The notes below the pieces were generated by a model. The model saw only the letters and a program-made list of their open reading frames with translations, had not been told where the DNA came from and searched no databases. 33,575 bases of DNA, taken from assembly GCA_002290555.1 (NCBI GenBank), contig NEUK01000008.1:1-33575 (forward strand), written 5' to 3'. Position numbers and translations under genes: made by a program. Positions 13,067-33,146 of the stretch are shown piece by piece. The stretch comes from Spartobacteria bacterium AMD-G4 (GTDB lineage Bacteria > Verrucomicrobiota > Verrucomicrobiia > Chthoniobacterales > Terrimicrobiaceae). Position 1 is the first letter of the stretch. Each line of letters opens with the position of its first letter.

Positions 13067-13756
13067 ATGTCGATACGCACTTCTATTCGATCCCCACTGG
13101 CTGCCTATGTGGCGCCTTTCCTGGTCTTCATGGCAGGCCTCATGCTGGTCTCGCTCGTCAAAGATTCTCAGGCCGGCTCGCTCTGGCTGCGCAGCCCGGA
13201 ATATTGGATCTATCCGCTGCAGACCGCCCTCTGTGGGGCGACGCTGATTTTTTACTGGCGCCAATATGATTTTGGAAAACGCGGCGGGGTTGTTCTCGGC
13301 TTGGCGGCCGGCGTGGTGGTGCTGGGCCTCTGGATCGCTCCGCAGGCCGTTCTGGGAGCGGGTGCGCGGGTGGACGGATTCGATCCCTCGGTGTTCGGCG
13401 AGGGCTCTGCGCTCTACTGGATGACGGTCACAGCGCGGTTCGCGCGATTGGTCATCATCGTCCCGTTGGTGGAGGAGATTTTTTGGCGGGGATTTTTGAT
13501 GCGTTATCTCATAAAGGAGGATTTCACCTCGCTGCCGGTGGGAGCGTTTCAATGGAAATCCTTCTCCGCAGTGGCGCTGTGTTTCATGCTTGTGCATGGC
13601 ATGGCGGATTGGCCGGCCGCCCTGCTTTGCGGGATCATTTACAATTTCGTGGCGGTGCGGACGGGCAGTCTCGGCGCCTGCGTGCTGGCCCATGCGGTGA
13701 CAAACCTCGGTCTCGGCGTTTATATTATGGCAACCCGGCAATGGGGATTCTGGTAA
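13067..13756 (+). CDS. CPBP (CAAX/Abi) family intramembrane metalloprotease
   Basis: Polytopic membrane protein of 229 aa with the CPBP catalytic motifs: EEIFWRGF (E136, E137, R141), a histidine in MLVHGMADWP (H177), and HAVTNLGLG (H209, N213). Several hydrophobic helices surround them. It resembles the CAAX-protease-related group often found in genomes with exosortase/PEP-CTERM systems, and an exosortase lies about 16 kb away. No substrate is apparent. The stop (13754-13756) is one base from the nadE ATG, so the two are probably co-transcribed. Confidence 0.88.
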   Translation: MSIRTSIRSPLAAYVAPFLVFMAGLMLVSLVKDSQAGSLWLRSPEYWIYPLQTALCGATLIFYWRQYDFGKRGGVVLGLAAGVVVLGLWIAPQAVLGAGARVDGFDPSVFGEGSALYWMTVTARFARLVIIVPLVEEIFWRGFLMRYLIKEDFTSLPVGAFQWKSFSAVALCFMLVHGMADWPAALLCGIIYNFVAVRTGSLGACVLAHAVTNLGLGVYIMATRQWGFW

Positions 13757-13757
13757 A

Positions 13758-15383
13758 ATGATGAATATCGGACTGGCTCAGATCAACGCGACGGTGGGCG
13801 ACCTGGAGGGCAATGCCCGCAGGATTGTGGAGGCGTGCCGCTTGCTGGAGGCCCAGGGATCGGAAATCATTCTTACTCCCGAACTGGTCCTGACCGGCTA
13901 TCCCCCGCAGGATTTGCTTTTCCAGTCCGACTTTGTGCCCATGAGCCTTCAAGCACTGGAAGAAATCCATAAAGCCGTCGGCAAGGCGGCGTGGATCGTG
14001 GGTTGTGTTCAAAAAAATCCCTCTTCCTCAGGGCGGCCGTTTTTTAATGCGGCAGCCATTCTGGAGCGCGGAAAAGAAATTCGCTGGGTCTATAAAACAC
14101 TCTTGCCGACCTATGATGTCTTCAACGAAACCCGCTATTTCGAGCCCTGCCAAAAGCCAGCACCGGTCGAGATCCAGGGCCGCCTTTTGGGAGTCACCAT
14201 TTGTGAGGACATCTGGACTCCAGATTATTTGCCACGCTCATTGTATTCCTGCGATCCGGTGGAGGTGCTGTGCGAAGCCAAGGCGACGGCGATCCTCAAT
14301 CTGAGTGCGTCACCTTTTCAACTCGGCAAGCCGCAGCGGCGCGAGGACATGATCCAAAACCGCGCACGGCGGCACGGCGTTCCCTTTTATTACTGCAACG
14401 CCGTTGGCGGAAATGACGAGTTGGTCTTCGATGGGCACTCGCTGGCGGTTGCCGCCGACGGAGCGATTCAGGCGCGCCTGCCGGGTTTCGAGGAATCTGC
14501 TCAACCGGCCTCAGGCGGTGTGGTGGAAAATGTCTCGAACGATATGGAGGATTTGCAACGGGCGCTGGTCCTCGGCGTGCGGGATTATGCATCCAAATGC
14601 GGCTTCAAATCCGCTGTCTTGGGCTTGAGTGGAGGTATCGACAGCGCGGTCGTTGCCTGCATCGCTGTGGAGGCGTTGGGAGCGACGAAGGTCACCGGCG
14701 TCGCCATGCCATCACCCTTCTCATCCACCCACAGCGTGGAGGATGCACTCGCCCTCGCCGAAAATCTTGGCATCACTTGTTTAAACATCCCGATTGGCGA
14801 CAGCTTTGCGTCTTTCAAAAAACAGATGCAGCCTGTCTTTGGCGATCTCCCCGAGGATGCCACGGAGGAAAACATGCAAGCGCGTCTTCGTGGTCTCACC
14901 CTCATGTCGCTCTCCAATAAATTCGGTCACCTCCTCCTCACTACGGGCAACAAAAGCGAACTCGCCGTGGGCTATTGCACGCTCTACGGCGACATGGCCG
15001 GTGGACTCGCGGCGATCTCCGATGTGCCAAAAACACTCGTTTACCAACTCGCGGCCCATTTGAACCAAAAAAAGGAAGTCATTCCCCACCGCACCATCGA
15101 AAAACCCCCGAGTGCGGAACTTCGCCCGGATCAGAAGGACCAAGATACCTTGCCGCCTTACGATATCCTCGATGGCATTCTGAAGCTCTATGTGGAGGAA
15201 AACCTCGGCGCTGCAGAGATCGTTGCTGCTGGATACGATACTGAAACCGTCCGCTGGGTGACTCGGCGGGTGGATTTCAACGAATACAAACGCGAACAAG
15301 CCGCACCCGGATTGAAAGTCACAAGCCGCGCCTTTGGCATGGGCAGACGGATGCCTATAGCCCAGAAATTCTTCTCCAAATGA
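13758..15383 (+). CDS. nadE: Glutamine-dependent NAD+ synthetase
   Basis: Makes NAD+ from deamido-NAD+, ATP and glutamine. The N-terminal glutaminase (carbon-nitrogen hydrolase fold, about 1-260) carries the E42-K113-C149 triad in TPELVLTG, YKTLLPTYD and TICEDIW. The C-terminal synthetase begins with the PP-loop LGLSGGIDSA (S291-S296) and has TTGNKSELAVGY and KPPSAELRPDQKDQD. At 541 aa it is the standard bifunctional length. Two consecutive ATG codons (13758, 13761) start it directly after the CPBP gene. The origin-like intergenic region follows it. Confidence 0.97.
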   Translation: MMNIGLAQINATVGDLEGNARRIVEACRLLEAQGSEIILTPELVLTGYPPQDLLFQSDFVPMSLQALEEIHKAVGKAAWIVGCVQKNPSSSGRPFFNAAAILERGKEIRWVYKTLLPTYDVFNETRYFEPCQKPAPVEIQGRLLGVTICEDIWTPDYLPRSLYSCDPVEVLCEAKATAILNLSASPFQLGKPQRREDMIQNRARRHGVPFYYCNAVGGNDELVFDGHSLAVAADGAIQARLPGFEESAQPASGGVVENVSNDMEDLQRALVLGVRDYASKCGFKSAVLGLSGGIDSAVVACIAVEALGATKVTGVAMPSPFSSTHSVEDALALAENLGITCLNIPIGDSFASFKKQMQPVFGDLPEDATEENMQARLRGLTLMSLSNKFGHLLLTTGNKSELAVGYCTLYGDMAGGLAAISDVPKTLVYQLAAHLNQKKEVIPHRTIEKPPSAELRPDQKDQDTLPPYDILDGILKLYVEENLGAAEIVAAGYDTETVRWVTRRVDFNEYKREQAAPGLKVTSRAFGMGRRMPIAQKFFSK

Positions 15384-15404
15384 GCCTCCTGGGAGAACAA
15401 GGAA

Positions 15405-15645
15405 CGCTGTCAACAGGCTGTGAACAACCTGTTGATCCGTGCCAGCAAGATCGAACAACCCGCCCGAAAAACCGAGTTTTTCAGAGTCGTTATTTTTCGC
15501 TCACCCGTTATTCACAGCATCAAAAGAGCGTGGAACACCCACAGGGACGCTGAAGAACAGGATTTCCACTGGTTGTTCACACTTATAAGAAGAAGAAGAA
15601 TCCTGAAAAATTATTTCTTTATTCTTAAGACATGTGAACAACCCT
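15405..15645. other. Candidate replication origin: DnaA-box-like cluster with AT-rich element
   Basis: In the 355-base gap after nadE there are four copies of TT(G/A)TTCACA. TTGTTCACA occurs at 15573-15581 on the plus strand and at 15419-15427 and 15633-15641 on the minus strand; TTATTCACA, a perfect TTATNCACA match, is at 15508-15516. Five bases after the third box come four AAG triplets (15587-15598), the pattern described as DnaA-trio. A stretch of about 47 bases (15584-15630) with roughly 21% G+C then leads to the fourth box. The first box sits in the loop of a perfect 8-bp inverted repeat (15410-15417 / 15428-15435). This arrangement of boxes, trios and an AT-rich unwinding region is what a bacterial oriC looks like. 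dnaA is not in the window, so function is inferred. Confidence 0.5.
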
Positions 15646-15738
15646 ACACTTAACGCGCTCCTCAAGCCGTGATCGCGCTTTTCAGTTGCTCAGGAACTTG
15701 CTAAACTTTTCGCACTTCAACACTCTCAATAACTCACC

Positions 15739-16716
15739 ATGTCTCAAGGCCCAGTATCCCAATTCATCGACCTTCACTACCGCCACTTCAACGCAGCCGC
15801 CCTCAAGGACGCCGCTGAAGCCTACACACAGCATTTGGACAAGGGAGGTATCATGCTCATGACTCTCGCCGGCGCTATGAGCACGGCCGAGTTGGGAATT
15901 TCCCTCGCGGAAATGATTCGCCAAGGAAAAGTCCACGGCATCGTTTGCACGGGAGCCAACCTCGAGGAAGACATCTTCAATCTTGTGGCGCACGACTTCT
16001 ACGAGCGCATCCCGCACTACCGGGACCTGACGCCAGCCGACGAGCAGGCCCTCCTGGCGCGTCACATGAACCGCGTCACGGACACCTGCATTCCCGAGAT
16101 GGAAGCCATGCGCCGTATCGAGGATGTCATCCTTCGAGAGTGGACGGCAGCCGACGCCAAGGGCGAGCGTCTCTTCCCGCACGAGTTTTTCTGGAGGATT
16201 CTCGATTCGCCGGAACTCCAAAAGAGCTTCCAGATCGATCCCAAGAACAGCTGGATGATTGCCGCCAAGGAGAAAAATCTCCCTATGTTTGTGCCTGGTT
16301 GGGAGGACTCGACCCTCGGCAACATGTATGCCGGACATTGCATCGAAGGAGATATCAAAAATGTTCACACTGTTCGCTCCGGCATCGAATACATGATCTC
16401 GCTGGCTGAGTGGTATGCACCGACCAGCCACAAGTCATCGATAGGCTTCTTCCAAATCGGCGGCGGCATTGCTGGCGATTTCCCGATTTGCGTGGTTCCC
16501 ATGCTCCACCAGGATTTGCGCCGCACCGATGTTCCGCTCTGGGGATACTTCTGCCAGATCAGCGACTCAACAACCAGCTACGGAAGCTATTCGGGGGCAG
16601 TGCCAAACGAAAAAATCACCTGGGGCAAGCTCGGCGAGAAGACACCAAAATATGTCATCGAGTCCGACGCCACCATTGTGGCCCCGCTCATTTTCGCCAA
16701 GGTTTTGGGCTGGTAA
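15739..16716 (+). CDS. Bacterial deoxyhypusine synthase-like protein (possible polyamine enzyme)
   Basis: 325-aa homologue of deoxyhypusine synthase. Bacteria lack the eIF5A substrate, and related proteins are linked to homospermidine or spermidine-type metabolism. An NAD-binding Rossmann-like fold is suggested by MTLAGAMSTAELG and GIVCTGANLEEDIF. Near the C terminus the active-site lysine motif is kept (ITWGK, W295, K297), as is the glutamate four residues before the tryptophan (E291). However, the region matching the human KHHIAN motif reads GGGIAGDFP (241-249), and the aspartates matching human D313 and D316 read tyrosine (SYGSYSG). Polyamine handling may therefore differ from true DHS. 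It is preceded by the origin-like region and followed by metF. The exact reaction is unknown. Confidence 0.85.
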   Translation: MSQGPVSQFIDLHYRHFNAAALKDAAEAYTQHLDKGGIMLMTLAGAMSTAELGISLAEMIRQGKVHGIVCTGANLEEDIFNLVAHDFYERIPHYRDLTPADEQALLARHMNRVTDTCIPEMEAMRRIEDVILREWTAADAKGERLFPHEFFWRILDSPELQKSFQIDPKNSWMIAAKEKNLPMFVPGWEDSTLGNMYAGHCIEGDIKNVHTVRSGIEYMISLAEWYAPTSHKSSIGFFQIGGGIAGDFPICVVPMLHQDLRRTDVPLWGYFCQISDSTTSYGSYSGAVPNEKITWGKLGEKTPKYVIESDATIVAPLIFAKVLGW

Positions 16717-29121: not shown

Positions 29122-30198
29122 TCAGTAGTCGTCGTCCCTTTTTTTAGCAGGCGATCCGGGCGGCGGCGGTGGCTTCTGGGTGGATCGCATGTTGGCGGCG
29201 GTCGGCACGGATTTTCGCAAGGATTCCATGGCACCGGGCACCTGCGCCCATAGGGTGGAGAAATTTGTCAGAAATTTACCGATCAATATCATGCCTCCGA
29301 TGGCCACAAAGAATACCAAGTAACCCGCCACCATGTGAAACCAGGAGGGGTCTGAAAGCGCATTTTTTCCGATGGCAAATTCCGAGCCAAACACAATCGT
29401 GCCGATGGTCAGCATGAGGATTCGCGCCAAGTTGCCAGCGATGGCCAGGGGAGCTGAGCACGCGAAAAGAATCCATTTTTGCCACCAGGTTTTCAGCGTG
29501 AATTGCGCATAGAGCGCGCTCGCCATCATGAGCGCAAAAAGCGATCGAATACCGGAACACGGGTCCGCCACATCGACGGCAAATTTTTTCCCTGCGGGAA
29601 TTCCCAGCATGGGGTCGGGCGCAGAAAGGATGCCAGTGCCATTGCGCACGACATCCACCCCAATGAAATCAAGCGAAAAAACCGCCGCGTGCGACATGAG
29701 CATGCGGAGCGGGAAGGCGATGTAATTGTCCAAAAAGGGCAGCGGCCAGGCAAAGACGAGGAACATCAGAGGGAAGACAAAAAAGAGAAGCGTCCGCCAG
29801 CCCAGCAGAAACCAAATCGAGCTGGCGACCAGCGCTTGGAAGGCAAAAAATCCCACATAGTGCGTGGCCATTCGCTGCCCCGCCCAGAAGAGCACAAAAG
29901 CGAGAATGGTGAAGACCATTCCAAGCCGCGAAAAGGAGGCGGCGGGCAAGGGCTTCTGGTGGATCGAACGGACGAAGATGGCCAAGGCGACTGGCAAGAC
30001 AAAAAGACAATGTCCCCAATCCGCACTGTCCTTCGTTATGTTCCAAAACTGCTTGAACGCCGACTCGGGGAAATCTCCATAGCCTTGGGAATAAGGGATG
30101 AGGGCAAATAACAAAAAGGGCAGAATCCATGAAAGCGCGAGGGCCAGGAGCTGGCGATCGGAGGCGTGGGAGCGTATTTGCGAGAGGTAATTACTCAC
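29122..30198 (-). CDS. Exosortase
   Basis: Polytopic membrane cysteine protease/transpeptidase (358 aa) that processes proteins bearing a C-terminal sorting tail. About eight to nine hydrophobic helices are visible. The catalytic triad is C214 in VADPCSGIRSLFALMM, R259 in GNLARILML and H288 in WFHMVAGYLVF. A hydrophilic Pro-rich tail (QKPPPPPGSPAKKRDDDY) ends the protein. The start overlaps the end of the glycosyltransferase-like gene by eight bases. No PEP-CTERM substrate is encoded in the window, so targets must lie elsewhere. The exosortase subtype cannot be assigned here. Confidence 0.92.
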   Translation of the reverse strand: MSNYLSQIRSHASDRQLLALALSWILPFLLFALIPYSQGYGDFPESAFKQFWNITKDSADWGHCLFVLPVALAIFVRSIHQKPLPAASFSRLGMVFTILAFVLFWAGQRMATHYVGFFAFQALVASSIWFLLGWRTLLFFVFPLMFLVFAWPLPFLDNYIAFPLRMLMSHAAVFSLDFIGVDVVRNGTGILSAPDPMLGIPAGKKFAVDVADPCSGIRSLFALMMASALYAQFTLKTWWQKWILFACSAPLAIAGNLARILMLTIGTIVFGSEFAIGKNALSDPSWFHMVAGYLVFFVAIGGMILIGKFLTNFSTLWAQVPGAMESLRKSVPTAANMRSTQKPPPPPGSPAKKRDDDY

Positions 30199-33106: not shown

Positions 33107-33146
33107 TTGATAGATTAGTCTATCAAAAATAATAGACCTTTCTATT
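33107..33146 (-). promoter_or_regulatory. Promoter region with twin ATAGA-N4-TCTAT palindromes
   Basis: TTGATAGA-TTAG-TCTATCAA (33107-33126) and AATAGA-CCTT-TCTATT (33131-33146) share ATAGA-N4-TCTAT with the same 4-base spacer. Their centres are 22 bp apart, about two helical turns. TATTAT (33129-33134, minus strand) fits a -10 element between them. The region lies 15-54 bases upstream of the DUF4143 ATPase start, where a repressor dimer pair would block transcription. The regulator is not identified. Confidence 0.55.

What the first reader, a model, noticed from the sequence alone, without database searches (positions are those of the whole stretch)
15405..15645. Origin-like locus between nadE and the DHS-like gene
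Four copies of TT(G/A)TTCACA within 223 bases are far more than chance for a 9-mer. One matches the TTATNCACA DnaA-box pattern exactly. The third is followed within five bases by four AAG triplets (DnaA-trio pattern) and then about 47 bases of roughly 21% G+C. These are the three parts of a bacterial basal unwinding system in the correct order. If real, it places oriC away from dnaA, beside nadE. By eye I see no clean strand-composition switch here, so the claim rests on motif architecture.
Basis: partly seen in the sequence, partly recalled or inferred. Interest (0 to 1): 0.75.

Follow-up and report, generated by a model that had tools for sequence, protein, structure and literature searches.

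The report
Verrucomicrobial replication origin, parS nearby
The stretch between nadE and the next gene is very probably the place where this bacterium starts copying its chromosome: the same DNA landing pad recurs in many relatives, often close to the chromosome-segregation site parS and not beside the dnaA gene where such origins are usually sought.

Summary
Four TTRTTCACA boxes lie at 15419-15641; the third is followed after five bases by AAGAAGAAGAAG and by the least stable 47 bp of the window. No other cluster of four exists in this 1.8 Mb draft; dnaA is on another contig. The module persists in the genus when the upstream gene changes. A sequence-only model built from 30 copies finds it in 140 of 213 genomes of the order and in some single-contig genomes of the class. 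Independent support: the nearest parS lies 0.1-15 kb away in 15 of 22 family genomes with the module, and 2-6 kb away in three single-contig class genomes; two reduced genomes without dnaA also lack the module. Raw GC skew turns positive 5-15 kb to its right in 6 of 9 genus genomes. Against: gene-direction-corrected skew does not switch inside the window, parS of this genome is on another contig, skew is inconclusive in two single-contig genomes, nothing was tested at the bench. Two conserved GGAAC motifs (-41, -19), parS half-site-like, are unexplained. Verdict: an oriC with a basal unwinding system in a lineage where I found no described one.

The parts
15419..15427 (-). DnaA box 1 (TTGTTCACA), -154 from the trio-proximal box, inverted
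   Evidence: same -154 position in 6 of the other 29 aligned loci (5 of the genus and G016)
15508..15516 (+). DnaA box 2 (TTATTCACA), -65
15530..15536 (+). conserved GTGGAAC element (GGAAC at -41), parS half-site-like, function unknown
   Evidence: GGAAC exactly at -41 in 20 of 30 aligned loci
15553..15559 (+). second element (GGAAC at -19 in many relatives; AGAAC here)
   Evidence: GGAAC exactly at -19 in 19 of 30 loci, both in 16 of 30, against 10 of 8790 other positions
15573..15581 (+). DnaA box 3 (TTGTTCACA), trio-proximal box of the basal unwinding system
15582..15586 (+). 5-base spacer; same length in the own locus and 10 genus relatives found without a motif search, and in all 30 aligned loci, which were however chosen by a fixed-spacing pattern (28 exact, 2 with one mismatch)
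15587..15598 (+). DnaA-trio run, AAG x4 (3'-GAA-5')
   Evidence: trio rule seen in PMC8287927
15599..15632 (.). A+T-rich unwinding region, 21% G+C
15633..15641 (-). DnaA box 4 (TTGTTCACA), inverted, +60
15384..15738 (.). whole intergenic region between nadE (stop 15381-15383) and the DHS-like gene: proposed oriC

Best explanation
The intergenic region 15384-15738 is the chromosomal replication origin (oriC) of this verrucomicrobial genome, built as a basal unwinding system. DnaA binds the boxes, is loaded from box 3 onto the AAG trios of one strand, and opens the A+T-rich stretch next to them so that helicase can enter. Shown here: the sequence parts, their conservation while neighbour genes change, single occurrence in this draft, separation from dnaA, closeness to parS in many relatives, and absence in two relatives without dnaA. 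Inferred: DnaA binding, melting, helicase loading and initiation. The two GGAAC elements are probably protein sites that set the timing or geometry of this complex.
For: Cluster far above chance. Module kept in 10 of 11 aligned genus relatives while the upstream gene changes, neighbours differ in other genera. Exact pattern in 29 of 213 order genomes, reversed control 0 (two of its 30 hits I judged chance). Sequence-only model R1 in 140 of 213 order genomes, 30 of which built it, and in 24 class genomes outside the order (189 searched in all; 8 of the 24 at E below 1e-8, all one family; at E 0.01 per genome about two false hits are expected). Nearest parS (up to 1 mismatch) on the same contig within 15 kb in 12 of the 18 family genomes that have both; in the three genomes of genus g3 two-mismatch variants lie 0.2 and 1.5-1.8 kb away, with none at up to 3 mismatches in 480 kb of remote G017 sequence. 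Single-contig genomes G361, G236, G246: parS 6.3, 1.8 and 4.8 kb from the R1 site. G031 and G040 show neither DnaA domain nor R1; genus mates G047 and G055 have the DnaA C-terminal domain and R1. Genus skew stack negative from -10 to +10 kb and positive from +10 to +45 kb. G017: score of the site as origin reached by 0.1-0.4% of permutations. At dnaA in G010 skew is positive on both sides.
Against: In this genome parS lies on contig C12 and the best parS-like site in the window has 4 mismatches; in 6 of 18 family genomes and 3 of 9 others parS and module are on different contigs. Fourfold-site skew corrected for gene direction does not switch within the window, nor across the module in G017 (-0.03 and -0.02), G010 or G020. 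In the genus the raw skew turn lies 5-15 kb to the right; beyond -25 kb to the left the two genomes with data are slightly positive; G006 turns only at +25 kb. G079 and G093 go slightly the wrong way. Sampled skew of G361 gives no support when weighted by distance and G358 only weak support; the best-fitting point in G017 is about 115 kb from the module. R1 finds nothing in 73 of 213 order genomes, some 95-100% complete. The region upstream of dnaA also has boxes. No experiment.
Confidence: 0.9

Rival explanations
1. The origin is upstream of dnaA, as in most bacteria, and the window cluster is a DnaA-titration or regulatory site.
For: The region upstream of dnaA (L001 about 2300-2750) has TTATTCACA and TTATACACA side by side and a CTATCCACA.
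Against: I see no trio run beside those boxes (by eye). No skew switch at dnaA in G010, nor in the stretches sampled at 3.45, 3.60 and 3.74 Mb around dnaA of G017. parS lies by the module and hundreds of kb from dnaA in G361 and G236; in G246 parS is 26 kb from dnaA and 5 kb from the R1 site.
Confidence: 0.05
2. The boxes are a DnaA-regulated promoter region for the DHS-like gene or nadE.
For: The module lies 5' of the DHS-like gene in the own genome and 10 of 11 aligned genus relatives.
Against: In G006 the module is beside nadE while the DHS-like gene is on another contig; in other genera the flanking genes are unrelated, yet the module is kept.
Confidence: 0.02
3. Initiation starts nearer parS, 5-15 kb to the right, and the module is one part of a wider origin domain.
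For: In four genus genomes the raw skew turns positive within about 4 kb of parS (about 5 kb from the module in G005, 11 in G010, 11 in G003, 14 in G015; parS at 5.3, 6.0, 14.7 and 14.3 kb) rather than at the module.
Against: Only 1, 0, 2 and 2 DnaA-box-like 9-mers within 3 kb of parS in those genomes (G005, G010, G003, G015; trios were not sought there); parS is known as a segregation site (general knowledge); a shift of 5-15 kb is under 1% of the chromosome.
Confidence: 0.06
4. The feature is a plasmid or integrated-element origin.
For: The contig is only 33.6 kb; the plasmid collection was not searched.
Against: The contig carries housekeeping genes (NAD synthase and MTHFR by Pfam; rnhB-, truA- and accC-like by recall), and the module recurs through family and order.
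Confidence: 0.01

Closest known systems
Basal unwinding system (BUS) of Bacillus subtilis oriC
   Same: DnaA box, short spacer, repeated trios with middle A, A+T-rich stretch, a further box upstream (PMC6669920 passages; PMC8287927 passages and first part of section 14).
   Different: One proximal box with a 5-base spacer instead of tandem boxes; trios are AAG, whereas TAG (3'-GAT-5') is the commonest; not next to dnaA; extra GGAAC pair; an inverted box beyond the A+T-rich stretch.
ParABS centromere parS near oriC
   Same: TGTTCCACGTGGAACA sites near the proposed origin in many relatives, as in other bacteria (PMC10197239 passages).
   Different: In this genome the parS sites are on another contig; whether a parB gene is present was not tested.
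Origin of Akkermansia muciniphila YL44 as placed by Hi-C, skew and parS
   Same: A verrucomicrobial origin placed by skew and parS in a set of 12 gut strains; the paper says that origin and dnaA do not always coincide (PMC10197239 passages).
   Different: The passages give only an approximate position, no box, trio or unwinding sequence.
Vibrio cholerae chromosome II origin, ParB2 half-site in a 39-mer
   Same: A parS half-site inside an origin element that a ParB protein binds (PMC3688505 passages).
   Different: Other initiator (RctB), other half-site (TGTAAA), inhibitory element; the half-site alone was not sufficient. Here half-site-like motifs are paired 22 bp apart beside a DnaA box and no binding is shown.

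Membership tests
Bacterial DnaA-dependent oriC | cluster of DnaA boxes in an intergenic region | tested here: met
Bacterial DnaA-dependent oriC | intrinsically unstable A+T-rich stretch beside the boxes | tested here: met
   least stable 47-bp window of the contig, narrowly
Bacterial DnaA-dependent oriC | one per chromosome | tested here: met
   R1 finds one place (overlapping hits on both strands) in the own draft genome, 82% complete; most listed genomes have one or two hits, G058 has seven hits in one 1.4-kb stretch
Bacterial DnaA-dependent oriC | lies at the GC-skew minimum | tested here: inconclusive
   raw skew turn within 5-15 kb in 6 of 9 genus genomes; flat after gene-direction correction in several; inconclusive in G361, G358 and weak-skew genomes
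Bacterial DnaA-dependent oriC | near parS | tested here: inconclusive
   met in many relatives; in the own genome parS is on another contig, so the distance is unknown
Bacterial DnaA-dependent oriC | binds DnaA and supports autonomous replication | not testable with these tools
   needs bench work
Basal unwinding system | at least three trios (3'-NAN-5') within 16 bp of a DnaA box | tested here: met
   four AAG trios, 5-base spacer; rule read in PMC8287927 section 14, part 1
Basal unwinding system | DnaA- and trio-dependent strand opening | not testable with these tools
   strand-separation assay needed
parS (for the GGAAC pair) | full 16-bp palindrome TGTTNCACGTGNAACA | tested here: not met
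   best site in the window has 4 mismatches and is not at the pair; in G025 the -41 element is one mismatch from the degenerate palindrome

The most novel reading that the evidence does not exclude
Origins of this group carry a pair of parS half-site-like motifs (GTGGAAC and GGAACA, 22 bp or about two helical turns apart, the second 19 bp before the trio-proximal DnaA box) through which ParB or a related protein touches the initiation complex directly, so that origin opening and origin segregation are wired together inside oriC itself.
Probability: 0.25. Interest if true: 0.78.

Novelty: new variant of a known kind. Interest (0 to 1): 0.62.

Why it matters
I found no described verrucomicrobial oriC sequence in the held library. 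Searches: Verrucomicrobi with DnaA-trio (0 papers); with DnaA box (6, listing only); Verrucomicrobia with replication origin, oriC and DnaA (7, listing only); Akkermansia with replication origin, GC skew, dnaA and oriC (0); any two of Verrucomicrobiota, DoriC, origin of replication (118, of which 20 listed); Verrucomicrobi with parS and chromosome segregation (13, listing). One of these papers (PMC10197239, passages) placed the Akkermansia origin approximately by skew and parS. Subscription papers, databases such as DoriC and supplements were not searched. If right, a short motif model locates the origin in many drafts where dnaA misleads, which helps growth-rate estimates from coverage, replichore analysis and vector building in this phylum. 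The GGAAC pair makes a direct ParB-oriC contact testable with a gel shift.

Tried and rejected
Skew was too weak or flat to inform in G058, G073, G079, G093, G027 and G201; G079 and G093 go slightly the wrong way; G003, G020 and G047 go the expected way in raw skew; for G023 only the left side was long enough. Skew scans of single-contig G358 and G361 with 20 samples of 5 kb each were inconclusive; the unweighted scan that favoured the R1 site of G361 is not used because the sampling was denser near the site. Pattern hits left out of the alignment: L205, L134 and the one-mismatch hits L112, L132, L133, L135, L136. L132 was wrongly dropped: it is the G022 site that the model later found. L134 was printed but its coding status not tested. 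parS hits set aside as likely chance: G016:C123 and G025:C30, one mismatch each; G025:C115:40959 is the -41 element itself. That the GGAAC pair is simply parS was rejected for the window. Its tie to parS is imperfect: G236 has exact parS but no GGAAC in the stretch read, five of six g28 loci lack the pair, and in g3 the pair is kept beside a variant parS. ParB half-site binding, weak DnaA binding and a third protein could not be told apart; no parB search was made.

Full report
What is there. The window is one whole contig (C73) of an 82%-complete, 1.8 Mb draft in 74 contigs. The third box is followed by 5 bases, AAGAAGAAGAAG, and the least stable 47-bp window of the contig, narrowly ahead of one at 33109. 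There are 29 TTRTTCACA in the genome, five in the reversed control, and no other cluster of four.

Conservation. Of 15 genus relatives, 11 gave a usable region upstream of the DHS-like gene; 10 of these and the own genome show box-N5-AAGA(A/T)GA and nearly all a downstream inverted box, also where the gene before it is not nadE; G006 and three genomes of genus g4 do not have it at that place. The pattern TTRTTCACAN5AAGAWGA with one mismatch is in 20 of 26 family genomes, with some extra hits that are likely chance; the exact TTRTNCACA version in 29 of 213 order genomes with no reversed-control hit. Thirty loci chosen by these patterns (28 exact, 2 with one mismatch) were aligned. GGAAC stands at -41 in 20 of 30 and at -19 in 19 of 30, both in 16, against 10 of 8790 other positions. 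Five of six loci of genus g28 lack the pair. A sequence-only model, R1 (E-values rough), finds the module in 140 of 213 order genomes at E up to 0.01, 30 of them its training set, and not in 73. In a class search of 189 genomes 50 match, 24 of them outside the order: eight at E below 1e-8, all in family f15, the other 16 weak. Read directly, G361 and G325 show GGAAC at -42 and -20, the box, N5 and an AAG run; G358 one GGAAC and a less regular run; G236 a TTATTCACA followed by a box-like 9-mer and TAGAAGAAGAAG, no GGAAC; G246 TTATTCGCA followed by TAGAAGAAGATGAAG, no GGAAC.

Neighbours. The flanking genes differ between genera; by eye they include alpha/beta hydrolase-, pyrF-, folP- and rnc-like genes (names recalled). 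In G006 the module is by nadE while the DHS-like gene is on another contig. This argues against a promoter for one gene.

dnaA. In the own genome and G003, G006, G010, G013, G020, G023, G027, G296 it is on another contig than the module, which leaves the distance unknown; in G017, G358, G361 and G236 it is on the same contig, 3.5 Mb, 2.0 Mb, 0.65 Mb and 0.97 Mb away along the sequence; in G246 about 32 kb away. The region upstream of dnaA in the own genome has three boxes and by eye no trio run. The 0.9 Mb single-contig genomes G031 and G040 show neither DnaA domain nor R1; their genus mates G047 and G055 have the DnaA C-terminal domain (the other domain was not sought) and R1. This is probably one evolutionary contrast, not four. 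Loss of DnaA in another verrucomicrobial endosymbiont is reported (PMC8204192, passages).

parS. With up to one mismatch TGTTNCACGTGNAACA occurs in 22 of 26 family genomes; reversed controls are fewer but not absent, in 6 of 26 genomes. Of the 22 family genomes with R1, 18 have such a site: the nearest is on the same contig 0.1-15 kb away in 12 (distances) and on another contig in 6, the own genome (C12) among them. G001 has none. In G017, G020 and G023 two-mismatch variants lie 0.2 kb and 1.5-1.8 kb before the box; none with up to three mismatches was found in 480 kb of remote G017 sequence. Twenty scrambled palindromes gave no hit at two mismatches in 36 module loci, where parS-like sites were found in 6, one of them the -41 element itself. 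In 34 genomes outside the family searched for exact sites, 9 have one: on the same contig as R1 at 1.8, 4.8, 4.8, 6.3, 10.6 and 83 kb, on other contigs in three. Three of the nine are single-contig genomes (G236, G361, G246), two with only weak R1 scores (E 0.0025 and 6e-4), so parS acts there as an independent check of R1.

Strand composition. Genus stack: mean raw skew -0.05 to -0.15 from -10 to +10 kb (8-9 genomes per bin), then +0.03 and +0.11 from +10 to +20 kb (6 and 5 genomes) and weakly positive to +45 kb (3-5 genomes); beyond -25 kb to the left the two genomes with data are slightly positive. The turn lies 5-15 kb right of the module in G000, G003, G005, G010, G013 and G015, at +25 kb in G006, and is not reached in G004 and G011, whose contigs end. 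Where parS is on the contig the turn lies within about 4 kb of parS in four genomes examined. Fourfold-site fractions change on both coding strands in the stack, but in the window itself the corrected value stays negative on both sides. G017 (3.76 Mb contig, sampled): negative at 0-60 kb, near zero at 60-140 kb (module at 75 kb), positive in 16 of 21 stretches from 200 kb to 3.17 Mb, negative in 4 of 4 from 3.3 to 3.76 Mb; corrected values are flat on both sides of the module. The score of the site as origin is reached by 0.1-0.4% of permutations, though the best point is about 115 kb away. G003, G020 and G047 go the expected way in raw skew; G010 goes from negative to near zero; G027, G058, G073, G201 are uninformative; G079 and G093 go slightly the wrong way; G361 and G358 are inconclusive. 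At dnaA of G010 skew is positive on both sides.

Mechanism. By analogy with B. subtilis (PMC6669920 passages; PMC8287927 passages and one section part) DnaA binds box 3, is loaded onto the trio strand and opens the adjacent A+T-rich DNA; upstream boxes may help by looping. All mechanistic steps are inferred. The GGAAC pair is spaced by about two helical turns and resembles half of parS; in V. cholerae chromosome II a ParB2 half-site within an origin element is needed, though not sufficient, for ParB2 binding (PMC3688505, passages). A ParB contact is the boldest reading; weak DnaA sites or a third protein are equally open.

Judgement. Kind: known (oriC with BUS). New as far as my searches show: the sequence of such an origin in this lineage, its separation from dnaA in the genomes checked, and the GGAAC pair. 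Confidence in oriC 0.9; in the ParB reading 0.25.

Noticed in passing
G058:C39:111605-113029: Four R1 matches in a row on one strand within 1.4 kb: a possibly repeated origin module in one genome.
   Followed up: no
G000:C58:30399-30427 and C16:4419-4466: Two other places in the own genome with pairs of TTATTCACA boxes 20-39 bp apart, possible DnaA titration sites.
   Followed up: no
G000:C12:11852-13073: Two exact parS sites of the own genome; raw skew is -0.16 at 10-12 kb and positive after it (also positive at 6-10 kb). A stretch between them matches the parS regions of G010, G003 and G005, so origin and parS may have been separated by rearrangement in this lineage.
   Followed up: partly
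15739-16716: Deoxyhypusine synthase-like protein, over the Pfam cut-off but far under the curated cut-offs of the seven NCBIfam families it matches, yet 70-83% identical in the 80 kept relatives from several phyla: a widely spread bacterial relative of unclear function.
   Followed up: no
29122-30198 (-) and 13067-13756 (+): An exosortase (TIGR02602 over cut-off) and a CAAX-protease-related protein (TIGR03008 over cut-off) in the same window.
   Followed up: no
G031 and G040: Two 0.9 Mb single-contig genomes without a hit to either DnaA domain.
   Followed up: partly
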